This document shows, piece by piece, positions 17,928-56,716 of a DNA stretch of 64,000 nucleotides. The stretch comes from a virus, in IMG/VR virus record IMGVR_UViG_3300035183_000733, positions 214,496 through 278,495 of that record. One strand, 5' to 3'. The notes under the pieces were generated by a model that was not told the origin of the DNA, did no database searches, and worked only from the letters and a program-made list of their open reading frames with translations. The position numbers and the translations under genes were made by a program. Within the stretch, counting starts at the first letter, position 1. Each line of letters begins with the position of its first letter.

Positions 17928-17997
17928 TTTGGTGAGCAGTATATAATAAAAGCCGTAACTTATTTGGTGAGCAGTATATAATAAAAGCCATAACTTA
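17928..17997 (+). promoter_or_regulatory. Tandem 35-bp repeat, candidate promoters of the glycan island
   Basis: The unit starting TTTGGTGAGCAGTATATAAT and ending in AACTTA occurs at 17928-17962 and 17963-17997, differing at one base. Each copy contains TTGGTGAG and TATATAATA, also found before the tail block at 14722-14749. The second copy ends seven bases before the ATG at 18005. A doubled promoter is the simplest reading. Confidence 0.6.
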
Positions 17998-18004
17998 TAG
18001 ATAG

Positions 18005-36827: not shown

Positions 36828-38069
36828 ATGCTCGCCATTCAGAAACACATAATAGAGCACGGGCTCGACGCGACCATCGAGAAGTTCAAGCTCGATTTCA
36901 AGGACTATCCGCACAAAGTGCTGCTTAAGTACAAGCAGATAGAGTCCCCTATGTCCATGCCAGAGGTGCAGGACGCGAGGGGGCTCGTTCTTCGCAAGTC
37001 CGACTGGAGCGTCCTGTCCCTTGCATTCAGAAAATTCTTCAACGTGGGCGAGGGCAACGGCGAGCCATTAGACTGGTCGACCGCGCGCATCTACGAGAAG
37101 CTCGACGGCACGCTCGTGCACGTCTACAGCGACGGCCATGATATTTGTTTTGGTACAACCGGCACCGCTGAGGGGGAGGGATCTGTGGATAACTTCCATT
37201 GGTCCCCGGACGGGGCGACAGAGGGGTCGTTCGGCACGTTCGCCGATCTTTTCTGGAAGGCGTTCCTCGAGACCAACCGGGCGGTAGCCCCCGACGGCAT
37301 GGTATACGAGAGCAGGAGGCAGGCGTTCGCCCGGTGGTCCGGATACACGCTCGCGTTCGAGCTGTGCACGCCGTACAACATAGTGGTCACGCCGCACACA
37401 GATTTCCGCGTGTACCTTCTCGGCGCTCGCAAGCTGGACACAATGGAGGAGGTCGGTTTCGACGACCTCAATAGGATGGCGGAGGCGCTTGGCGTGCTTA
37501 GACCGAGGACGTTCGACGTGAGCGATGTCGACGAGCTCATGGTCATGGTGGCGAAACAGCCGTTCAGCATGGAGGGCGTGGTGGCGTGCGACGCGAACTT
37601 CAACAGGCGCAAGCTGAAGAACCCGGCATACGTATCGGTTCACCACATGCGCAAAGCTACCGCTTACTGGAGGATAGTCGACGTTGTCCGTTCCGGCGAG
37701 ATGGACGAGTACCTCGCGTACTTCCCGGGAAGGAAGGAGGAGGTGTCCGATATTGAGTCAAAATGGAAAAGCTTAATATCTAAGATGGAAGAGATGGCGG
37801 CGGACGTCAAGCCGCACGCAGATAAAGTGAGGGCGAGCGACCCGGAATCTCCAGAATCGAGACTCGCAAGAAAGGACGCGGCAATGTTTATATCAAAGGA
37901 GGCGAAGCGGAGGGGGTTGACCCCTTTCCAGGCTTACTTCTTCAATATGCTCGGCGGCGCCAGGGCTGTGCGCTCGCCGGAATCGAGGACCGCCAATCTG
38001 TACGACTATTTGTTGCGATACGACGGAAGAGAGATGTATGCGCAGCTTAAAAAGTGGAAGATGGAATAA
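36828..38069 (+). CDS. rnlA: RNA ligase, T4 Rnl1-like
   Basis: IYEKLDGTLVHVY holds motif I with the nucleotidyl lysine K91; ARGLVLRKSDWSVLSLAFRK is the upstream conserved block, ELCTPYNIVV motif III-like, FSMEGVVACD motif IV and KLKNPAYVSVHHM motif V. The C-terminal ~140 helical residues match the Rnl1-specific domain. 413 residues versus 374 for T4 Rnl1. Rnl1 reseals tRNAs cut by host anticodon nucleases. A phosphatase/kinase partner may be the HAD protein at 58141. Confidence 0.9.
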   Translation: MLAIQKHIIEHGLDATIEKFKLDFKDYPHKVLLKYKQIESPMSMPEVQDARGLVLRKSDWSVLSLAFRKFFNVGEGNGEPLDWSTARIYEKLDGTLVHVYSDGHDICFGTTGTAEGEGSVDNFHWSPDGATEGSFGTFADLFWKAFLETNRAVAPDGMVYESRRQAFARWSGYTLAFELCTPYNIVVTPHTDFRVYLLGARKLDTMEEVGFDDLNRMAEALGVLRPRTFDVSDVDELMVMVAKQPFSMEGVVACDANFNRRKLKNPAYVSVHHMRKATAYWRIVDVVRSGEMDEYLAYFPGRKEEVSDIESKWKSLISKMEEMAADVKPHADKVRASDPESPESRLARKDAAMFISKEAKRRGLTPFQAYFFNMLGGARAVRSPESRTANLYDYLLRYDGREMYAQLKKWKME

Positions 38070-43892: not shown

Positions 43893-44645
43893 ATGACAGA
43901 AACATCGGAAGCAAACTTAAAGGAGCGGATAGCAGGCACTATCGCTCAAATCAAAGAGGGAAACCTCACACCAAAAAATTCAGGCATCGGGAGAATGTTC
44001 CATGAGCTAATGTCCATCAATAAGGAGGAGTACCTCCAGTTACTTGACGAATATAAGCCGATTGCTGCCGAGTATTTCAAGAAATATCCCAACAAGTCAA
44101 GCGTTAACAAAGAGAAGCTCATTCAAAGAGAGATGGAGAGAATCCTCGCGGGTCTCGACAACAACGGAGACGAGGGGGATTTCGGAGATGACGAGGACCG
44201 TCCGCGCTCTAAGAGAGGACCTACGGACGCTAAACCTAAAAGCGTGAACCGCGACAGGATAGCGAAGGTGAAGATCCTCACACCGAAGGTCGTGAGACCG
44301 AAGGGCGCCCGCGACCGCTCGAACTTCAAATTCAACGGCATCGAGTACGGCAAGGGCCCGCTTGTCCATGCTATTCTCACGGCCCACGTGGAGGCGAACA
44401 AGGGCATCAAGCACGACCAGATGAAGCTCGCGTTCCCAGACGCATTGCTGCGCAGCTATGGGATATTCAAGAAGCTCGAAGAGGCACAGGAGATTTCGAA
44501 GGATCGCAAGCGTTATTTCTTGAAGGAGTCGCAAATAATAAAGTTGGCTGACTGCAGCATCGCGGTGTGCAACCAGTTCACGAGCGACAACATTCAGGCG
44601 TTCCTCGGCGCGGCCAGGAAGCTTGGTTATTCCATAGAGCAGTAA
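43893..44645 (+). CDS. Regulator-like paralog A flanking the ABC cassette (250 aa)
   Basis: Residues ~1-85 are helical (LKERIAGTIAQIKEGNLTPK), a basic linker follows, and residues ~145-250 form a domain shared with the gene at 50300: FKFNGIEYGKGPLVHAILTA, KLAFPDALLRSYGIF, RYFLKESQIIKLADCSIAVC and NQFTSDNIQAFLGAARKLGY. The domain family is not recognised. It lies at the upstream border of the ABC-importer-like cassette, with its paralog at the other border; a shared regulatory job is inferred. Confidence 0.7.
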   Translation: MTETSEANLKERIAGTIAQIKEGNLTPKNSGIGRMFHELMSINKEEYLQLLDEYKPIAAEYFKKYPNKSSVNKEKLIQREMERILAGLDNNGDEGDFGDDEDRPRSKRGPTDAKPKSVNRDRIAKVKILTPKVVRPKGARDRSNFKFNGIEYGKGPLVHAILTAHVEANKGIKHDQMKLAFPDALLRSYGIFKKLEEAQEISKDRKRYFLKESQIIKLADCSIAVCNQFTSDNIQAFLGAARKLGYSIEQ

Positions 44646-46510: not shown

Positions 46511-47860
46511 TTGGTGGAACCCTTGGAGTCGGATACAAAATTCTTCGGCTGGTTCCAAAAACCAACAAAACAGTCGGGACAAATTACGGTAGCGGATCTT
46601 CCGCCACTGCAGTATGACAAGAACGCGAACGCGCCAAAGCGTGCGCTCCCCGACACTACACAAATGACAACCCTTGCAGTTCCAGAATGGAGAGCGGGTA
46701 TCATGGGTTGGAACGCGCAGGCCGGTGTGGCTTACGCAAACGGTGGTCCTTCAACAATGAAGGGATCTATCATGGAGGAACAAGGCGTTAAATTGCGTCT
46801 TATCTGCCAGAACAACTGTACCGAGCAGGGCAACCAATTGTTCGCCTTCGCGCAGGACTACGCTTCCGGAAACAAGAACTCGTCAAAGGGCTATCACATG
46901 ATTGCTTGGATGGGAGACGGGGTTCCGTCTTATCTCGCAGGTCTTAACGACCAAATCAAAAAACAACTCGGTGACGATTACATTATTCAGGCGTTCACAG
47001 CGTTCGGTGCTTCATTCGGTGAGGGCAAGGCCATCTATAAGGATGGTTCCTTCCGTCAAGACCCGCAGAAATTGCGCGGTTCCCTTTGGGTTGGTGTGTT
47101 GCGTGACGGCGACTGGAATATTCTAATGAAGTATGCCGACCTTAACGGTATTGACGTCAACAACGACCCTACCACGTACGACCCTACGGCCATCAACTGG
47201 ATGGGTATCGATGACTACATTAAAGCAGCCCAAATCTACGTGTCTAAGACCACTGAGAAGCGTCCTATCGTTATCAATGGTAAAAGGACAGGCCGAGATA
47301 CAACTGTCACAGTGGACGGTTGCGTTACGTGGACTCCGGGAGACAAAATCTGTTTCGAGGGTCGTGGTGGTGTAACAGTATTCTCGACTAAGGATAATGG
47401 TGCGCAGATGCCTAACACGTGGTTGGCTTGTAAGAAGTGGTTACAGGACAACAAAGCGAGCGTTGAGAAATTCATCCTTGCTGGTTGTTTAGGTGGCGAC
47501 CAGGTTAAGTCCCACACTTCGGCATTGGCATTTGCTTGCCGTGTGCAGGATGCGATATACCAAGACGCTGGCTTGACGGCTGATGACTGGCAGCAGTACT
47601 TCGTAGGTAAGCAATTTACAGATGCGCAGGGCAACATAAACGAAATCGGTGGATCCCGCGTGTTCAACCTTGCGGACCTTGCGGAGTATTACGGCTTAAA
47701 CGGAAGCACCGATAAGTACAAAGCCGTGTATGTTACTTTTGGTGACCTATGTGTTAAAGCATACCCGGATGTAATGCCTACGTACTTCCCTTACGAGGAG
47801 GTGGTGGACTTGAGTACGTGCAGTCAGTGTATACAAACAATAAAAACAACGCCAACATGA
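46511..47860 (+). CDS. ABC solute-binding protein domain (gene frameshifted; OmpA-tethered)
   Basis: The frame encodes a NitT/TauT-type periplasmic binding domain: LAVPEWRAGIMGWNAQAGVA, DYIIQAFTAFGASFGEGKAI, and GAQMPNTWLACKKWLQDNKA. The gene really starts at ATG 46442 (MSKIGNFFKGLTMG); a signal-anchor, GGIFFLALIIVGGTLGVGYK, lies in another frame because of an indel in the G-run at 46480-46484 and a second near 46540. Near 47813 a third one-base shift separates DLS-YVQSVYTNN and so cuts off the OmpA domain. One tethered protein of ~600 residues is inferred. Confidence 0.78.
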   Translation: MVEPLESDTKFFGWFQKPTKQSGQITVADLPPLQYDKNANAPKRALPDTTQMTTLAVPEWRAGIMGWNAQAGVAYANGGPSTMKGSIMEEQGVKLRLICQNNCTEQGNQLFAFAQDYASGNKNSSKGYHMIAWMGDGVPSYLAGLNDQIKKQLGDDYIIQAFTAFGASFGEGKAIYKDGSFRQDPQKLRGSLWVGVLRDGDWNILMKYADLNGIDVNNDPTTYDPTAINWMGIDDYIKAAQIYVSKTTEKRPIVINGKRTGRDTTVTVDGCVTWTPGDKICFEGRGGVTVFSTKDNGAQMPNTWLACKKWLQDNKASVEKFILAGCLGGDQVKSHTSALAFACRVQDAIYQDAGLTADDWQQYFVGKQFTDAQGNINEIGGSRVFNLADLAEYYGLNGSTDKYKAVYVTFGDLCVKAYPDVMPTYFPYEEVVDLSTCSQCIQTIKTTPT

Positions 47861-48255
47861 CAGTGGCTTCTATGCCTACGTTCTCGGAGAACCAGAAGAT
47901 GTCGCAGCTTGTGTCTAACAAGTCGTACGTTATCGAGTTCCAGACCGGCTCCGCCACCATCTTACCTGCATCTATCCCTACTCTTAATCAGTTGGCAAAC
48001 GACTTGATTATCGCAGAGAACCTCCTCGTGTCCATCGAGGGTCACACGGATAATCAGGGTGACGATGGAATGAACATGCAGTTATCACAGCAACGTGCTG
48101 AAGCGGTTCGTCAGTGGTTAATCAACAAAGACCAGAAGATATTCCGTAACAAGGTGTCTGCTCAGGGCTTTGGCGAGACCACTCCTATCGGGGACAACAA
48201 CACTGATGCGGGTCGTAAGAAGAACCGCCGTGTTGAAATCAAACTTGGCCGTTAA
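47818..48255 (+). CDS. OmpA-like peptidoglycan-binding domain of the solute-binding protein
   Basis: YVIEFQTGSATILPASIPTL, LLVSIEGHTDNQGDDGMNMQ, LSQQRAEAVRQWLINK and DAGRKKNRRVEIKLGR are the OmpA_C signature in order, including the Asp/Arg that bind diaminopimelate. Its first in-frame residues QSVYTNNKNNANMTVASMPT continue the solute-binding protein of the frame ending at 47860, so it is the C-terminal domain of that protein, not a separate gene. It would anchor the binding protein to the cell wall. Confidence 0.85.
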   Translation: MQSVYTNNKNNANMTVASMPTFSENQKMSQLVSNKSYVIEFQTGSATILPASIPTLNQLANDLIIAENLLVSIEGHTDNQGDDGMNMQLSQQRAEAVRQWLINKDQKIFRNKVSAQGFGETTPIGDNNTDAGRKKNRRVEIKLGR

Positions 48256-48260
48256 CATTG

Positions 48261-48288
48261 AGAGCCGGTATTTTACCGGCTCTTTTTT
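48261..48288 (+). terminator. Rho-independent terminator inside the ABC cassette
   Basis: AGAGCCGGTA (48261-48270) pairs with TACCGGCTCT (48274-48283) around TTT and is followed by more T's. It separates the binding-protein gene from the permease gene, so the latter needs read-through or its own promoter. It also makes an upstream start at 48258 for the permease unlikely. Confidence 0.9.
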
Positions 48289-48299
48289 ATCCATTCGTC

Positions 48300-49097
48300 A
48301 TGAATAAAGTTACAGCATTCATCAAAGACATATTCACGCCAAACAAGCAGCTCAAACAAAACAAGCAGCTCCTGGTGTTGACAATATGGGTGGCGACCGT
48401 CCTAATATACTGGACGTTCAGTCACACACAACTCCTCCCGAGTTTACCAAATATATGGGAAGCTACCAAGGGTTTATTCGCTAACGGATTTCTCGCAGAG
48501 CTCCTGTCGAGTATCTGGCTATGCGCTAAGGGAATGTTCTGGGCCACCATCATATCATTGGTGATAGCATACCTGGCAGTCATGCCTTTCTTCCGGCCGT
48601 TCACGGCGTTCGTTGGTAAGGCGAGATTCATGACAACTATAGGCTTAACTTTCCTATTTGCCCTTATATGCAAGGACACCACGTCACAGAAGGTGGCGCT
48701 GCTCGTGTTCGGCATAACTGTATTTCACGTTACGTCCATCTCGGCAATCATATCGAGTGTTACCAAGGCGGAGCTTGACTACGCGAGAACACTCAAGAAG
48801 AGTGAGTGGGAGACGGTGTGGGAAGTCATCATACTCGGAAAGGCGGACCAGGTCCTTGATGTGATACGACAGAACTTTGCGATTGCGTGGATGATGCTTG
48901 CAATGGTAGAGAACCTATGCCGGTCGGAAGGCGGTATCGGTGTGATACTCAACGACCAGAACAAAGTATTCCACCTCGATGCGGTTTACGCTATCCAGAT
49001 AATGATTTTGATACTCGGTATGTTCTTTGACTGGATGCTTGGCTTCGTGCGCAAGACTCTTTGTCCTTACGCATACATAACACTTGAAAGAAAATGA
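48300..49097 (+). CDS. ABC transporter permease, TauC/NitT-type
   Basis: About six hydrophobic segments (LLVLTIWVATVLIYWTFS; MFWATIISLVIAYLAVMPFF; TIGLTFLFALICKDTTSQKV; AVYAIQIMILILGMFFDWML). The cytoplasmic loop YARTLKKSEWETVWEVIILG corresponds to the EAA loop that docks the ATPase. The start MNKVTAFIKD is chosen because the terminator hairpin occupies the bases just upstream. 265 residues is usual. It overlaps the ATPase gene by four bases, so they form one unit. Confidence 0.87.
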   Translation: MNKVTAFIKDIFTPNKQLKQNKQLLVLTIWVATVLIYWTFSHTQLLPSLPNIWEATKGLFANGFLAELLSSIWLCAKGMFWATIISLVIAYLAVMPFFRPFTAFVGKARFMTTIGLTFLFALICKDTTSQKVALLVFGITVFHVTSISAIISSVTKAELDYARTLKKSEWETVWEVIILGKADQVLDVIRQNFAIAWMMLAMVENLCRSEGGIGVILNDQNKVFHLDAVYAIQIMILILGMFFDWMLGFVRKTLCPYAYITLERK

Positions 49098-49921
49098 AGC
49101 AAGAATATCAAATACTCGAAAAGACTATCCTTAAGGTCACAGATGTTTCGCTTAAGCTCGACGATAAGCTAATCCTGCGAGATATAAATCTCGAGATTAA
49201 GGACGTTGTACGTCCTGTCAAGACTACCGGACAGATCGTCGGATTTCTCGGACCATCCGGTCGTGGGAAGACGATGCTGTTCAACATACTTTCCGGATTA
49301 CGTAAACCCACAACCGGCGAGGTGCTCGTAAATGGCAAGCCGGTTTATCCTGGCATGGTTGGCGTAGTCGCACAAGCGTATCCGTTGTTTCAACATCGTT
49401 CGATTCTCGGAAACTTGCAGCTTGCGGCCGCAAAGAACACTCGCTTAAGTAAGGCGGAGCAGAAGGATAAGATTGAGTTCTACCTCGAGCGATTCAAATT
49501 GGCCGACAAGCATAAGTTCTATCCGGCGCAACTATCCGGTGGACAGAAGCAACGTATCGCGATTATTCAGCAGTTGTTGTGTTCGGAAAATTTCTTGTTG
49601 ATGGATGAGCCGTTCTCAGGACTTGACCCGAATATGACTGAAGAGGTATGCGAGGTCATCACGGAGGTCGCAAATCTTGATGACTTAAACACCATAGTGG
49701 TGGTATCCCACGATTACCACTCTACGTCTTCCATAGCAAACAATCTCTGGTTCATGGGATATGACTTCAGGGAGGACGGTACCCCAGAGCCTGGTGCATA
49801 CATCAAGTTCCAGGAGGACATGATGGACCGCGGGTTCGCGTGGCGATTCCCAGAGATACTCGACGACACAGACTTCGGCAAGTTCACGAGAGACGTGCGG
49901 CGTGCATTCAAAAATCTTTAA
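49094..49921 (+). CDS. ABC transporter ATPase, TauB/NitT-type
   Basis: Walker A GPSGRGKT (53-60), Q-loop in VVAQAYPLFQHRSI, signature LSGGQKQR (147-154), Walker B FLLMDEPFSGLD and H-loop VVSHDYHS are all present and in order. Residue 58, usually a small residue, is Arg (GRGKT), a change worth noting but not clearly inactivating. 275 residues. It powers the permease encoded by the overlapping upstream gene. Confidence 0.93.
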   Translation: MKQEYQILEKTILKVTDVSLKLDDKLILRDINLEIKDVVRPVKTTGQIVGFLGPSGRGKTMLFNILSGLRKPTTGEVLVNGKPVYPGMVGVVAQAYPLFQHRSILGNLQLAAAKNTRLSKAEQKDKIEFYLERFKLADKHKFYPAQLSGGQKQRIAIIQQLLCSENFLLMDEPFSGLDPNMTEEVCEVITEVANLDDLNTIVVVSHDYHSTSSIANNLWFMGYDFREDGTPEPGAYIKFQEDMMDRGFAWRFPEILDDTDFGKFTRDVRRAFKNL

Positions 49922-50299: not shown

Positions 50300-50938
50300 A
50301 TGAAAACAACAACAGACAACAAAGCTAAAGTCACAGCATTCTTAACTAAGAACCCGAAGAGCGATGCAAAGGCCATTGAGAAAGCAACTGGTATCAAACG
50401 TTCCGAAGTGTTTGCCGTTATCGGTGAGCTTGGTAAACAAATTGACACTTTCCAAAAGGGGGCTAAGAGTGTGAAGTTGTTCTCGGTAGTTATGCCCTCT
50501 GTTGAAAAGGCAAAAGCCGCAAAAGCCGCAAAAGCAGCCGAGGTTGAGAAAACTGCCAAGACCGACAAGTCGGAAGGTAAGAACTTCGGACGCGATTTCT
50601 CCAAGTACCAATTCAACGGACAGGAATTTCGCAAGGGCAAATTAGTTTTGGCCGTTGTGAAATTCATCGCTGAGAAACAGGGATGCAGTTTCAAGAAGTT
50701 GCTTGAAATTTTCCCTTCTGAGTTGGTGCGCAACTACGGTGTGTTCACCGAGGCAAGCACGGCCCGCAAGATGAACGCGAGCGGTAAGCAGCGTTACTTC
50801 TGCCAGGCGGACCAGTTCATCAAATTGAAGGATGGTTCTGTTGTGGCCGTTACAAACCAAATCAGTTCGAACAACATCGACCCAATCTTGGAGATTGCAC
50901 GTCAGAACGGTTGCAAAATCGTAGCTGTCCGTCCCTGA
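50300..50938 (+). CDS. Regulator-like paralog B flanking the ABC cassette (212 aa)
   Basis: The N-terminal 55 residues (KVTAFLTKNPKSDAKAIEKA then TGIKRSEVFAVIGELGKQID) look like a winged helix. After an alanine/lysine-rich linker, residues ~103-212 share the domain of the gene at 43893: YQFNGQEFRKGKLVLAVVKF, LLEIFPSELVRNYGVF, GKQRYFCQADQFIKLKDGS and NQISSNNIDPILEIARQNGC. The two paralogs bracket the transporter cassette. DNA binding is inferred, not shown. Confidence 0.72.
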   Translation: MKTTTDNKAKVTAFLTKNPKSDAKAIEKATGIKRSEVFAVIGELGKQIDTFQKGAKSVKLFSVVMPSVEKAKAAKAAKAAEVEKTAKTDKSEGKNFGRDFSKYQFNGQEFRKGKLVLAVVKFIAEKQGCSFKKLLEIFPSELVRNYGVFTEASTARKMNASGKQRYFCQADQFIKLKDGSVVAVTNQISSNNIDPILEIARQNGCKIVAVRP

Positions 50939-51021
50939 ATGTTGTTACTTGGGACCAGTTGAACAGGCCTGAGCGCCCGTTCAGATATTCATTGTATATT
51001 TGTACAATAAAACCAATAAGG

Positions 51022-52152
51022 ATGAAATCGGTAAAACTTTTTACACTGGAAAAGTCACGGTGGGAAACATTCGAGTACGATAAACTCAGCGACATCTCCG
51101 CTGAGTTCAAAAAGCGTGGCATTAGCATCGGCCAGCGCGTGAGCATCGGCGACGGCGCGATCATCGGCCGGGGCGCGAGCATCGGCGACGGCGCGAGCAT
51201 CGGCGAAGGCGCGAGCATCGGCCCCCGCACGAACATCGGCGAAGGCGCGAGCATCGGATGGGACGCGAGCATCGGCCCCCGCACGAACATCGGCGAAGGC
51301 GCGAGCATCGGCCGGGGCGCGAGCATCGGCCGGGGCACGAACATCGGCGACGGCGCGATCATCGGCGACGGCGCGATCATCGGCGAAGGCGCGAGCATCG
51401 CCCCACGCGCGAAAATCGGCCCACGCGCGAGCATCGGCGACGGCGCGATCATCGGCCCCCGCACGAACATCGGCGAAGGCGCGAGCATCGGCGACGGCGC
51501 GAACATCGGATGGGACGCGAGCATCGGCCCCCGCACGAACATCGGCGAAGGCGCGAACATCGGCCGGGGCGCGAGCATCGGCCGGGGCGCGAGCATCGGC
51601 GACGGCGCGAGCATCGCCCCCCGCGCGAACATCGGCCCCCGCGCGATCATCGGCGAAGGCGCGATCATCGCCCCCCGCGCGAGCATCGGCGACGGCGCGA
51701 TCATCGGCGACGGCGCGAGCATCGGCCCCCGCGCGAACATCGGCCGGGGCGCGAAAATCGGCGAAGGCGCGAAAATCGGCCGGTGCGCGAGCATCGGCGA
51801 CGGCGCGATCATCGGCGACGGCGCGAGCATCGGATGGGACGCGAAAATCAGCCGGTACGCGATCATCGGCGACGGCACGATCATCGGCGACGGCGCGAGC
51901 ATCGAGGAATGCGTTATCGTGCGCTCTCTCAGCTTCAACGGATCAAGACATCACGTGTCGTATTGGGGCTCAGATGAGATTCAAATCGGCTGCATGAAAT
52001 ACTCTATAAAATATTGGCAAAATAACTTCAAGAGCATCGGTGAAACCGAAGGTTACAGCGCAGAAGAGATCGCGGAGTATGGTACCTACATCGAGTTGAT
52101 TGCAAATTTGCATGAGAAAAACGCGTTGTCTCACATCGTCAAAAAGAAGTAG
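51022..52152 (+). CDS. Giant hexapeptide-repeat (left-handed beta-helix) protein
   Basis: Start ATG at 51022 is preceded by AATAAGG; an earlier in-frame start at 50911 overlaps the previous gene. Residues 35-298 are 44 consecutive hexads of the form [S/I/N/K]-I-G-x-x-A, such as SIGDGA, IIGEGA, NIGRGA and SIGPRT. Three hexads make one coil of a left-handed beta-helix, so ~14-15 coils. Residues 299-376 form a helical cap (VSYWGSDEIQIGCMKYSIKY). A protein this regular could be a structural rod or a scaffold; it has no obvious acyltransferase catalytic histidine. Confidence 0.82.
   Translation: MKSVKLFTLEKSRWETFEYDKLSDISAEFKKRGISIGQRVSIGDGAIIGRGASIGDGASIGEGASIGPRTNIGEGASIGWDASIGPRTNIGEGASIGRGASIGRGTNIGDGAIIGDGAIIGEGASIAPRAKIGPRASIGDGAIIGPRTNIGEGASIGDGANIGWDASIGPRTNIGEGANIGRGASIGRGASIGDGASIAPRANIGPRAIIGEGAIIAPRASIGDGAIIGDGASIGPRANIGRGAKIGEGAKIGRCASIGDGAIIGDGASIGWDAKISRYAIIGDGTIIGDGASIEECVIVRSLSFNGSRHHVSYWGSDEIQIGCMKYSIKYWQNNFKSIGETEGYSAEEIAEYGTYIELIANLHEKNALSHIVKKK
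51124..51915 (+). repeat. 18-bp minisatellite: 44 tandem repeats
   Basis: The hexad units are encoded by 18-base repeats around GGCGCGAGCATCGGC, with variation mostly at the two codons that follow ATC GGC (GAC GGC, GAA GGC, CGG GGC, CCC CGC, TGG GAC). Larger blocks are also repeated. It is much more GC-rich than its flanks and has no stop in several frames. Copy number is expected to be unstable. Confidence 0.9.
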
Positions 52153-54059: not shown

Positions 54060-55781
54060 ATGCGCAAAGTTATATCGATACTTCTGGTGCTGCTTAACGC
54101 GGTCGCGTGGGCGCAAAAGCTTCCGGAAAAGGACCCGCGACTTTACGTGACAGACCTTGACAACCTCCTCCAGTACGAGGAGAGAGTGGCTCTTGATCAG
54201 AAAATACGCGACTACAGGGCGAAGACTACCACCGAATTCGCCATAGCCATTGTCCCGACACTCGACGGATACGATGTGGCCGATTACGGAAACAAACTGT
54301 TCAAGAAGTGGGGCATTGGCGACAAGAAACTCAACAACGGTTTGCTTCTCCTGGTTTGTGCAAAGGAGAGGAAATGGCGTATAGAGGTCGGATACGGTCT
54401 TGAGCCTTTCTTGACCGATTATTACACGAAGGGACGCGGTGACGCCTTGCTTAAACCGAACTTCAAGCAGAAAAAATATTACGAGGGCATGGATGCGTTA
54501 TTAAGCGACTTCATGGCCAAACTTGGCAACGAGAAGTTCGAGTTGATGCTTGCCAACTATAAGAAGACTCAGGCCGAAATTGCTGCCGAGCAGGCTGCAC
54601 AGGCGGAGAGAGACAGGATAGAGAGCGAACGTAGACAAGAGGCGTTTCTCAACGGCCTTATGTGGTTTCTTGGGGCTGCAGGTATAATAGGTTTCATCGT
54701 ATTGCTGATAGCACTCGACCGCCGCAAAAAGAGACGCGAGCGCGAGGAACGCGAACGGGTAGAGCGCGAGGAAGCGGCTCGCAAGGCCAGAGTTGCCAAG
54801 CTGAAGTCTGACATTCTCGAGTTAAAGAAATTTAAGAGGAACACAGAGCCGACGGTAGCTATAATAGAATCATTCAAGTACGACATCGGCCAGGCCAACA
54901 TGCGGAAGGTGTTCAACACCGACTGTGAAGAGATTGACCGTGAGGTTGTGGAGCTCAGCGACATAGAGTTCGAACTCCAGGAGACTCTTACCAGGTTGAA
55001 ATACATCGTCAAGGAATCCACACATGCGATTCACGAGTATGAAGTGAAGATGAAGAACGCGACAGAGACTGAACATGCGGTAAACTCTATTGCACGGATG
55101 ACGGGAGTGCTTAGATCGCAGCAGCTTGACGCGAAAGTTGTGTACGACTCGATCACCAAGAAGTACAAGCGTGAAGTGTGGGACGGCCGCATGAAGGAAC
55201 CTTCGTACATCGACAGCAATCTCAAGGAGGCCGAGCGCTTGTACGAGAAGGCCGTCAATTTTCTGAAGGACAGTAAAATATCACAGGCACGCGAGTGTGC
55301 GACCTCTGCGACCTCTATACTGTGCAGGTCTAATTCGTACTTACGTTCGCCTTATGAGTTAAGAGACTCATTGAACAAGGCCGAGAAAGTTATGACGGAT
55401 TTTGAAACCGACATCAAGAACAAAATAACTAAGGCGGAACGTCTGTCTAAAGATTCTGACGTGGAATCCTCGTCCAAGCGCAAACTCACCGAAGCTAAGA
55501 CCAAGTACGCGGGGTTCACAAAAACGGGCCATCCGCTTGTCGACGCTGCAGCTGCGCTTGCTATACTGTCGGCATTTGACTCGGCGTACAGGGCCATGGA
55601 TTCCGATATTTCTGACGCTAAGCGTAAGCGGGAGGAAGAGGAACGCAGGCGTAGACGCAACAGCTCTTCTTCATCGTTCGGTTCTTCCTTCGGTTCGAGC
55701 AGCTGTTCATCGTCGAGCTGTTCATCATCGTCGTTTGGTGATTGTAGTTCTGGATGTGGGAGCTCGAGTGGAGATTGGTAA
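54060..55781 (+). CDS. TPM-domain membrane protein with coiled coil and Ser/Cys-rich tail
   Basis: Signal peptide (MRKVISILLVLLNAVAWAQ), then a TPM domain (YVTDLDNLLQYEERVALDQK; TTEFAIAIVPTLDGYDVADY; NNGLLLLVCAKERKWRIEVG; YGLEPFLTDYYTKGRGDALL). A membrane helix near 200-220 (FLGAAGIIGFIVLLIALDRR) leads to a ~300-residue cytoplasmic coiled coil and a C-terminal run of serines, cysteines and glycines. TPM proteins are known from bacterial envelopes and photosystem assembly. 573 residues. Confidence 0.85.
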   Translation: MRKVISILLVLLNAVAWAQKLPEKDPRLYVTDLDNLLQYEERVALDQKIRDYRAKTTTEFAIAIVPTLDGYDVADYGNKLFKKWGIGDKKLNNGLLLLVCAKERKWRIEVGYGLEPFLTDYYTKGRGDALLKPNFKQKKYYEGMDALLSDFMAKLGNEKFELMLANYKKTQAEIAAEQAAQAERDRIESERRQEAFLNGLMWFLGAAGIIGFIVLLIALDRRKKRREREERERVEREEAARKARVAKLKSDILELKKFKRNTEPTVAIIESFKYDIGQANMRKVFNTDCEEIDREVVELSDIEFELQETLTRLKYIVKESTHAIHEYEVKMKNATETEHAVNSIARMTGVLRSQQLDAKVVYDSITKKYKREVWDGRMKEPSYIDSNLKEAERLYEKAVNFLKDSKISQARECATSATSILCRSNSYLRSPYELRDSLNKAEKVMTDFETDIKNKITKAERLSKDSDVESSSKRKLTEAKTKYAGFTKTGHPLVDAAAALAILSAFDSAYRAMDSDISDAKRKREEEERRRRRNSSSSSFGSSFGSSSCSSSSCSSSSFGDCSSGCGSSSGDW

Positions 55782-55801: not shown

Positions 55802-56716
55802 ATGAAAAACAAACAACTCTGGGATAAGCTCGCGTCGTTCATGGTGGACGACAATAGCGCTCCTCGCAGCTTCTTGAAGAAGCTCGCTAAGGAGAACGGG
55901 TGGAGCATGGAGCTTGCTGCGCGTGCATTTGAAGAATACAAGAAGTTCATGTATTTGGCTACAATTATGGAGGTCACTCCATCCAAACGCATAGATGAGG
56001 TTTGGCACCTGCACCTGCAATATACCAAATCATACTGGAAGGACCTCTGCGCAGGGATTCTCGGAACCGAGATTCACCACAATCCAGGTGACGGTAATGA
56101 GGTGGCAGAAGCTAAATTCCGTGATGTGTACAAGGAAACTAAGGAAGCCTACGTGGTGGAATTCGGACAGACTCCGCCATCTGACATCTGGGGCGGCGAC
56201 GAGGTTGTGCGTGACGAGCGTCAAATTATAGTAGACACTGTCAGAAAACGCTCGAAGTTCGCGAACGGAGTCAGGGCAGTTCTCGGAATTTCCTCTGTTC
56301 TGTTGATGACATCCGGCACAGCATGGATGCTCGTTTTAGGGTTGATACTTGGCGGGGTTATTGTTGCCGCTATAATAAATTCAATCGTCAGAAACAACAG
56401 GCGTTCCAATTCCAGAAATTCCAAGAGTTACGGTTCTTCGTACGGAAGCTCTTCGTACACGAGATCCTACTCATCGTGTTCGAGTAAAAAAAAGAAGAAA
56501 GATGACGATAATAACAATAGTGGATGCTCGTCGTCACCAATAATATCGAGCTGTTCTTCGTCGTGTTCCGGACATAGTCACAGCAGTTGTTCAAGTCACA
56601 GCAGTTGTTCAAGCAGTTGTTCCTCATCATCAGGTGGAGGGGATTCGGGCGGCGGCGGATCGAGTTCGTGTGGTAGTTCGTGTGGCGGCGGCGGATGCGG
56701 CGGCGGCGGTGATTAA
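55802..56716 (+). CDS. GRDP/TIGR04222-like membrane protein with Cys/Ser/Gly-rich tail
   Basis: The N-terminal region with MEVTPSKRIDEVWHLHLQYT then SYWKDLCAGILGTEIHHNPG matches glycine-rich-domain (DUF1399-like) proteins, whose hallmark is 'S..VD.VWH.H'. One or two membrane segments near 160-200 (AVLGISSVLLMTSGTAWMLV; LGLILGGVIVAAIINSIVR) precede a ~100-residue tail of Ser, Cys and Gly. Bacterial relatives of this layout accompany TPM proteins, as here. A cell-envelope role is inferred. Confidence 0.78.
   Translation: MKNKQLWDKLASFMVDDNSAPRSFLKKLAKENGWSMELAARAFEEYKKFMYLATIMEVTPSKRIDEVWHLHLQYTKSYWKDLCAGILGTEIHHNPGDGNEVAEAKFRDVYKETKEAYVVEFGQTPPSDIWGGDEVVRDERQIIVDTVRKRSKFANGVRAVLGISSVLLMTSGTAWMLVLGLILGGVIVAAIINSIVRNNRRSNSRNSKSYGSSYGSSSYTRSYSSCSSKKKKKDDDNNNSGCSSSPIISSCSSSCSGHSHSSCSSHSSCSSSCSSSSGGGDSGGGGSSSCGSSCGGGGCGGGGD

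What the first reader, a model, noticed from the sequence alone, without database searches (positions are those of the whole stretch)
51022..52152. Protein with 44 near-identical hexapeptide repeats on an 18-bp minisatellite
Residues 35-298 are an uninterrupted run of [S/I/N/K]IG[x][x]A hexads, predicting a ~15-coil left-handed beta-helix ended by a helical cap. Variation is confined to a few alternating pairs (DG, EG, RG, PR, WD), and larger blocks such as SIGPRTNIGEGA recur, a sign of expansion by unequal exchange or slippage. Ordinary hexapeptide enzymes have 5-10 coils and less regular sequence. This could be a length-variable rod, ice-binding-like surface or virion fibre.
Basis: partly seen in the sequence, partly recalled or inferred. 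Interest (0 to 1): 0.82.

Follow-up and report, generated by a model that had tools for sequence, protein, structure and literature searches.

The report
Length-variable phage beta-solenoid with shared cap
A giant phage encodes a rod-like protein built from 44 near-identical six-residue repeats closed by a cap that many unrelated phages put on quite different repeat rods, and in the relatives compared the repeat number changes far faster than the sequence around it, so this looks like a modular, fast-evolving non-enzymatic rod rather than a one-off curiosity or an ordinary enzyme.

Summary
In detail: 51022-52152 encodes 376 aa with 44 uninterrupted hexads (residues 35-298, 18-bp units). It is one copy of a mobile gene. 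The same 374-kb phage carries a second full copy (about 31 hexads), a truncated copy and a cap relic.

The key to the protein is its ~70-residue C-terminal cap (three strands and two helices in AlphaFold2, pLDDT 88-94). The cap has no Pfam or PDB match. It recurs in about 40 viral contigs, a Vibrio phage and, more distantly, P22-like Salmonella phages, always after a repetitive solenoid. The solenoids differ: left-handed hexapeptide, YdcK-like or right-handed pentapeptide.

Array length is hypervariable. Two contigs with 100% identical flanks have about 11 and 29 repeats. P22-like isolates with 99-100% identical flanks range from about 8 to 26. Published phages L and ST64T (>99.9% identical) differ by one repeat there.

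The array has no His and no TxT, scores below every NCBIfam acyltransferase cut-off shown, is nearly neutral, and lacks fixed cap-to-cap register. Family neighbours are mostly recombination and DNA-methylase genes. An acyltransferase, ice-binder or DNA mimic is therefore unlikely, and a virion fibre is disfavoured.

Best reading: an intracellular, early-region, length-variable rod with a conserved functional cap. Its target is unknown.

The parts
50995..51002 (+). TATATTTG box, matches the Bacteroidota -7 promoter element TAnnTTTG (element recalled from general knowledge), 27 bp upstream of the ATG
   Evidence: one of only 2 boxes among 25 start regions examined; expected 0.027 per 90-bp window. 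Suggestive only; no clear -33 element.
51022..52152 (+). whole gene, 376 aa
51022..51123 (+). N-terminal cap, residues 1-34 (beta-beta-alpha)
   Evidence: AlphaFold2 E2-8, E13-19, H22-31, pLDDT about 70-81; shared with other hexapeptide members and similar in arrangement to the pentapeptide member L059
51124..51915 (+). array of 44 hexads of 18 bp, 73% GC against 49% for the window
51916..52149 (+). C-terminal IGC-cap, residues 299-376 (beta-beta-beta-alpha-alpha, pLDDT 88-94 over residues ~311-360)

Best explanation
This is a non-enzymatic, probably cytoplasmic rod protein of a phage-wide modular family. A short N-cap starts a beta-solenoid, tandem repeats extend it, and a conserved C-terminal domain (here called the IGC-cap, motif IGCxxHTxxxWxxxxxxIGxxxxYsxeqIxeYxxYI) closes it. 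Because the same cap closes hexapeptide, YdcK-like and pentapeptide solenoids, the conserved working part is inferred to be the cap (target binding, or pairing of two rods as the C-terminal helices do in Qnr/MfpA). The solenoid is inferred to be a stiff spacer whose length changes repeat by repeat through replication slippage or unequal recombination without breaking the frame. The gene is inferred to act inside the cell early in infection, among recombination, methylase and antirestriction genes, as a host-takeover or counter-defence factor. Shown: architecture, shared cap, length hypervariability, paralogs, likely horizontal spread, early-region neighbourhood in relatives. Inferred: cytoplasmic action, dimerisation, host-directed role; the target is unknown.
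For: Shared cap on different solenoids; hhalign between the hexapeptide and pentapeptide groups aligns the cap only, probability 99.4%, E 3.6e-21; P22-like cap 96.1%, E 2.9e-9. Same N beta-beta-alpha / C beta-beta-beta-alpha-alpha arrangement predicted for P0001 and for pentapeptide member L059. YdcK-type member L045 matches solved YdcK 2f9c, E 2.5e-22. Length change: L056/L057 with 100% identical flanks and arrays of 141 against 411 nt; P22-like isolates with about 8 to 26 repeats and 98.9-100% identical flanks; phages L and ST64T, >99.9% identical, differ in length at two sites, one of them one 15-bp repeat in early-left-operon orf232 (PMC8022706). Own-genome copies: flanks 84-93% identical, about 44 against 31 hexads, a truncated copy and a cap relic. 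No cap-to-cap register: hexad counts take all three values mod 3 (anchors of three rows corrected by hand). Neighbours: Erf, Dam, YqaJ/PDDEXK, ssDNA-binding protein, RecE.
Against: I found no expression, localisation or binding data for any member. The cap could itself be merely a folding cap with no target. A few members lie near terminase, endolysin or baseplate genes (L009), and the second copy in this genome is about 13 kb from the gp23-like capsid gene. The neighbour survey shows only the commonest 25 families per PHROG scan and has no random-gene control. The array part of the AlphaFold2 model is of low confidence (pLDDT about 43-78).
Confidence: 0.55

Rival explanations
1. Virion fibre, spike or decoration rod whose length and surface vary to change adsorption.
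For: Beta-solenoid rods are common in tail spikes; long repetitive arrays suit a fibre; one relative (L009) sits a few genes before its terminase; this phage has a T4-like tail-fibre attachment/RNA ligase gene at 36828-38069.
Against: The target gene is more than 55 kb from terminase and about 155 kb from the gp23-like capsid gene. Family neighbours are mainly recombination and methylase genes, and P22-like members are in the early left operon. No tail-fibre domain was found in it; the Foldseek hits of the P0001 model to tailspikes are weak (TM about 0.2-0.3) and the model is poor.
Confidence: 0.12
2. DNA-mimic or topoisomerase/nuclease modulator: the solenoid imitates B-DNA, as Qnr and MfpA do for gyrase, and length sets affinity.
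For: Pentapeptide members are structural neighbours of MfpA/Qnr in Foldseek; position next to ral, methylases and recombination genes; phage gyrase modulators are known (PMC10886550).
Against: Array net charge is close to zero in the target and differs in sign between members (window -3 over 264 residues, or -1 in the automatic segment; others from -17 to +4), unlike an acidic DNA mimic. The part conserved across the family is the cap, not a solenoid surface.
Confidence: 0.12
3. A hexapeptide acyltransferase that acquired extra coils.
For: Hexapep profile 1.9e-49 and PDB matches to LpxA, GlmU and others; phages do encode hexapeptide O-acetyltransferases such as NeuO (PMC3046976, abstract).
Against: No histidine before residue 310, hence none in the array. 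All 25 NCBIfam matches shown fall below their curated cut-offs. No coil-breaking loops. The cap is shared with pentapeptide proteins that cannot have this active site.
Confidence: 0.03
4. Selfish or neutral repeat: a small cap gene in which the array drifts in length with little effect on function.
For: Arrays from about 2 to over 40 repeats with the same caps; single-repeat changes between otherwise near-identical phages; no fixed register.
Against: The reading frame and the inward Ile/Gly/Ala pattern are kept in both full copies here, and very long arrays recur in several repeat chemistries, which suggests that a rod is wanted.
Confidence: 0.15

Closest known systems
PHROG phrog_5353 (phage family of unknown function)
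   Same: Matches hexads and cap of P0001 together, E 6.8e-80; the cap alone 8.7e-9.
   Different: Profile has 256 positions, so this member has a much longer array; no function is given for the family.
P22-like early-left-operon pentapeptide gene (ST64T Orf-232, ST104 ORF19, phage L orf232)
   Same: Hyper-repetitive beta-solenoid followed by a related GC..H...W cap; array length varies between near-identical phages.
   Different: Pentapeptide (right-handed) instead of hexapeptide; the second half of the cap diverges (hhalign aligns only its first 33 residues).
YdcK family (PDB 2f9c, 2pig; NCBIfam NF040481)
   Same: Other members of the capped family (for example L045, L041) have a YdcK-like N-cap and VxGNA repeats.
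   Different: P0001 has another N-cap and repeat type; the L041 match to the YdcK model stays below its cut-off and does not reach the cap.
LpxA/LpxD/GlmU/NeuD hexapeptide acyltransferases
   Same: Hexapeptide left-handed beta-helix sequence pattern.
   Different: Far more coils, no loops, no array histidine, below all curated cut-offs shown.
Qnr/MfpA pentapeptide repeat proteins
   Same: Rod-like beta-solenoid with C-terminal helices; the pentapeptide member L059 matches them in Foldseek.
   Different: Different repeat and handedness in P0001, near-neutral charge, and a beta-beta-beta-alpha-alpha cap with no sequence match in the PDB.
Pentapeptide + DUF5758 phage proteins
   Same: Phage L028 carries one about 2.3 kb from its own capped hexapeptide gene; similar N-cap to L059.
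   Different: Another C-terminal domain on the same kind of N-cap and solenoid, suggesting that the modules are exchanged.

Membership tests
IGC-capped phage beta-solenoid family (phrog_5353 and relatives; named here) | C-terminal cap with IGC...W...IG...Y....I..Y..YI | tested here: met
IGC-capped phage beta-solenoid family (phrog_5353 and relatives; named here) | near-identical tandem solenoid repeats directly before the cap, number varying between close relatives | tested here: met
   (own copies about 44 and 31 hexads), 89 and 106 for relatives
LbH acyltransferases (LpxA, LpxD, GlmU, NeuD) | hexapeptide repeat solenoid | tested here: met
   Hexapep 1.9e-49
LbH acyltransferases (LpxA, LpxD, GlmU, NeuD) | catalytic histidine on the solenoid | tested here: not met
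   His only at residues 310, 311, 364, 371, all in the cap
LbH acyltransferases (LpxA, LpxD, GlmU, NeuD) | score over the curated family cut-off | tested here: not met
   best 150.9 bits against a cut-off of 207 for LpxD-like NF002060; all 25 shown are below
LbH antifreeze proteins (spruce budworm type) | TxT ranks on one face | tested here: not met
   0 TxT in the array; CfAFP is not among the Pfam matches of P0001
DNA-mimic pentapeptide proteins (Qnr/MfpA) | pentapeptide repeat | tested here: not met
   period is 6; only sister members with the same cap have period 5
DNA-mimic pentapeptide proteins (Qnr/MfpA) | acidic, DNA-like surface | tested here: not met
   whole-protein net charge -1 and array -3; surface electrostatics not computed
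Phage virion fibre or spike | gene within a structural module / protein in virions | tested here: inconclusive
   gene is distant from terminase and capsid genes; no proteomics available
YdcK family | YdcK N-cap and score over the NF040481 cut-off | tested here: not met
   no YdcK hit for P0001 among the 25 shown or in Pfam; met in part by sister members L045 and L041

The most novel reading that the evidence does not exclude
Phages use one conserved effector cap that can be mounted on unrelated, even opposite-handed, beta-solenoids, and tune it by slippage-driven rod length as a fast, frame-safe form of variation (a contingency-locus-like ruler) in the arms race with the host.
Probability: 0.25. 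Interest if true: 0.8.

Novelty: new variant of a known kind. Interest (0 to 1): 0.55.

Why it matters
Arrays like this are usually annotated as hexapeptide transferases, pentapeptide or YdcK proteins and left apart. The shared cap joins them into one phage family and shows that the fold of the rod is exchangeable while the end is not. In phages L and ST64T one repeat of such a gene is one of only two length differences in about 40 kb, so the array is among the fastest-changing parts of those genomes. P22-like phages of laboratory Salmonella are cultured, so the open question of what phage-encoded repeat solenoids do becomes directly testable. Several metagenomic contigs also end inside these arrays, so assembled catalogues probably under-represent them (consistent with PMC9238414).

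Tried and rejected
Acyltransferase: rejected (no array His, below cut-offs). Ice binding: rejected (no TxT). Diversity-generating retroelement: considered from the codon pattern (AGC/ATC/AAC/AAA at one slot), but the first codon base never varies and whole units recur, so cassette shuffling fits better; no search for a reverse transcriptase was run. Face-specific periodicity: residue types show no significant period 3 (p 0.26-0.44). DNA mimic: weakened by near-zero charge of varying sign. Assembly artefact: not excluded for the exact repeat number, but length variation also appears in sequenced isolate phages. Foldseek with the P0001 model gave only weak matches to right-handed helices (best E 9e-4, TM 0.3) because the array model is poor; not used. 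Two genome-contig scans with cap patterns confirmed no relative: the patterns are strict, so this does not show absence from bacteria. The L009 terminase found nothing in G000, without a positive control in that search. No E. coli genome matched the P22-like gene by megablast.

Full report
What is there. The window is bases 214,496-278,495 of a 373,759-bp virus record. The record has a T4 gp23-like capsid gene at about 110 kb, terminase matches at 326-329 kb and, inside the window, ribonucleotide reductase, a DnaB-like helicase and a T4-like RNA ligase/tail-fibre attachment gene, so it is a jumbo phage. The finding is a real 376-aa ORF at 51022-52152. Residues 35-298 are 44 hexads without interruption.

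DNA-level expansion. The unit varies almost only in set slots: AGC/ATC/AAC/AAA at position 1; GAC, GAA, CGG, CCC/CCA or TGG at position 4, with its partner codon at position 5; GCG or ACG at position 6. Every Ile codon is ATC, 54 of 54, against 7 of 11 in the rest of the gene and 35 of 93 in four neighbours. GGA occurs in the array only before TGG. GC is 73% against 49% for the window. This is the mark of recent unit duplication. The longest exact internal repeat is 53 bp.

Copies in the same genome. A second full copy (295 aa, about 31 hexads by the same anchors) lies on the other strand at about 96.1-97.0 kb, and directly next to it is a truncated copy without the cap (83 aa). N-flanks are 84-93% and C-flanks 92% identical in DNA, but the arrays differ in number and order. 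A ~100-bp cap relic lies at 312.5 kb. A 38.6-kb metagenomic phage contig (L009) has a cap region 90% identical in DNA, and its terminase has no match in this genome, which suggests recent horizontal spread between different phages.

The cap. Residues ~302-368 have no Pfam match and no significant PDB match. Searches with alignments of the cap gave 8 and then 44 IMG/VR loci (some are duplicates), and protein searches added a Vibrio phage and human-gut phages. Wherever enough sequence upstream is available, the cap follows a repeat solenoid, but the repeats belong to several kinds: IGxxA, LGxxC and LGNxV hexads; V[YS]G[ND]A hexads of the YdcK kind (PDB 2f9c, E 2.5e-22); pentapeptides A[DN]Lxx, AQLNN, FRGGV and GGTIL. 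Profile comparison of the hexapeptide and pentapeptide groups aligns only the cap (probability 99.4%, E 3.6e-21). AlphaFold2 predicts the same beta-beta-alpha start and beta-beta-beta-alpha-alpha end on both. The pentapeptide model is confident (mean pLDDT 91) and matches right-handed pentapeptide structures. The array of P0001 is modelled with low confidence, so its left-handedness rests on the Hexapep profile and on sequence matches to solved LbH proteins, not on the model. Other C-terminal domains can also follow similar N-caps and solenoids, for example DUF5758 in L028. The P22-like cap is a more distant relative: tblastn E 5e-3 from the L020 cap, hhalign 96.1% over its first half.

Length variation. 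Contigs L056 and L057 are 100% identical in the gene's flanks and 400 bp on either side but have arrays of 141 and 411 nt. L051/L054 have identical N- and C-flanks with arrays of 339 and 375 nt. Because these are metagenomic assemblies I looked at sequenced isolates. In P22-like phages with 98.9-100% identical flanks the pentapeptide array has about 8 (PM43), 14 (ST160), 15 (ST64T), 21 (ST104) and 26 (Salfasec13b) repeats (counts after the common SGSR, read from the alignment). The paper on phage L states that L and ST64T are >99.9% identical, that 16 bp of difference occur at two sites, and that one is a 15-bp deletion of one pentapeptide repeat in the early left operon gene orf232 (PMC8022706). 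L050 keeps N-cap and C-cap with about two hexads.

Register. Measuring from the first solenoid Ile/Leu to the cap anchor, hexapeptide members have about 44, 31, 39, 19, 14, 28, 15, 9 and 5 hexads. The remainder within a hexad is constant within a repeat type, but the number of hexads takes every value modulo 3, so the two caps are not held in a fixed rotation. The script used a wrong N anchor for the window, copy B and L028; those three were recounted by hand. This argues against a function that needs one flat face along the rod in fixed relation to both ends, such as ice binding.

Where it acts. Of 122 near neighbours of family loci, the recurring named families are Erf-type annealing proteins, exonucleases, RecE and DNA methyltransferases; Pfam gives Dam, ERF, PDDEXK, YqaJ and ssDNA-binding proteins, with single terminase and Mu gp36 hits. 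Next-nearest genes give HNH endonucleases, endolysins, NinG and replication genes, and two baseplate-hub/lysozyme hits. In most P22-like phages examined the gene lies downstream of ral or N and upstream of gp17, cIII, kil and erf in the early left operon. This is a DNA-metabolism and early neighbourhood, not mainly a structural one. There is no random-gene control, and only the commonest 25 families per PHROG scan were visible.

Mechanism. Shown: the modular architecture, the DNA-level expansion, the fast length change, the copies and the early neighbourhood. Inferred: the protein is intracellular (no evident signal sequence, by eye), not an enzyme of the known hexapeptide kinds and not an acidic DNA mimic. 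The conserved cap is the working end, by target binding or by pairing two rods as Qnr and MfpA do through C-terminal helices (PMC10886550), and the solenoid is an adjustable spacer. A counter-defence or takeover role is the most likely setting, with no direct evidence. I put 0.55 on the whole statement; the architecture and length variation alone deserve about 0.9.

Novelty. The hexapeptide fold, pentapeptide proteins and phrog_5353 are known. Seven full-text literature searches found no description of the shared cap or of its use on solenoids of opposite handedness, but most subscription papers are not in that library. I class it as a new variant of a known kind.

Noticed in passing
window 46511-49921: Transporter-like cluster in a phage: a 398-449 aa protein without a convincing family match, an OmpA/YiaD-like protein (47857-48255), a TauC-like permease (48300-49097) and an ABC ATPase (49094-49921).
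   Followed up: partly
window 43893-44645 and 50300-50938: The two proteins look like paralogs by eye over their C-terminal ~100 residues (FNG.E..KG.LV...FP..L.R.YG.F ... NQ..S.NI); the second lies directly before the finding.
   Followed up: no
window 54060-55781 and 55802-56716: TPM-domain protein followed by a protein with a Ser/Cys/Gly-rich tail; both genes carry short tandem repeats coding that tail.
   Followed up: no
window 50862-51938 (-) and 51258-51977 (+): The 18-bp array is open in other frames too (358-aa antisense ORF, 239-aa Arg/His-rich ORF), an automatic result of the repeat that could be mis-annotated as genes.
   Followed up: no
window 17928-17998: 35-bp direct repeat (two copies, 97%) between a run of - strand genes and a run of + strand genes; a possible divergent control region.
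   Followed up: no
G000:C1:325988-328652 (L082, L083): Two terminase matches, the second in an open frame of 1283 aa, long enough to hold an intein or another insertion.
   Followed up: no
L052 1-480 and 3335-4060: Another phage with two hexapeptide solenoid genes that share the N-cap but end in different C-terminal domains.
   Followed up: partly
L009, L010, L037, L040, L043, L048, L062 and others: Viral contigs begin or end inside the repeat array, as expected for short-read assembly breaking at such repeats.
   Followed up: partly
L016 3001-3405 (Aeromonas phage Ahp1_CNU-2021): A phage hexapeptide solenoid protein with irregular repeats and a different C-terminal part.
   Followed up: no
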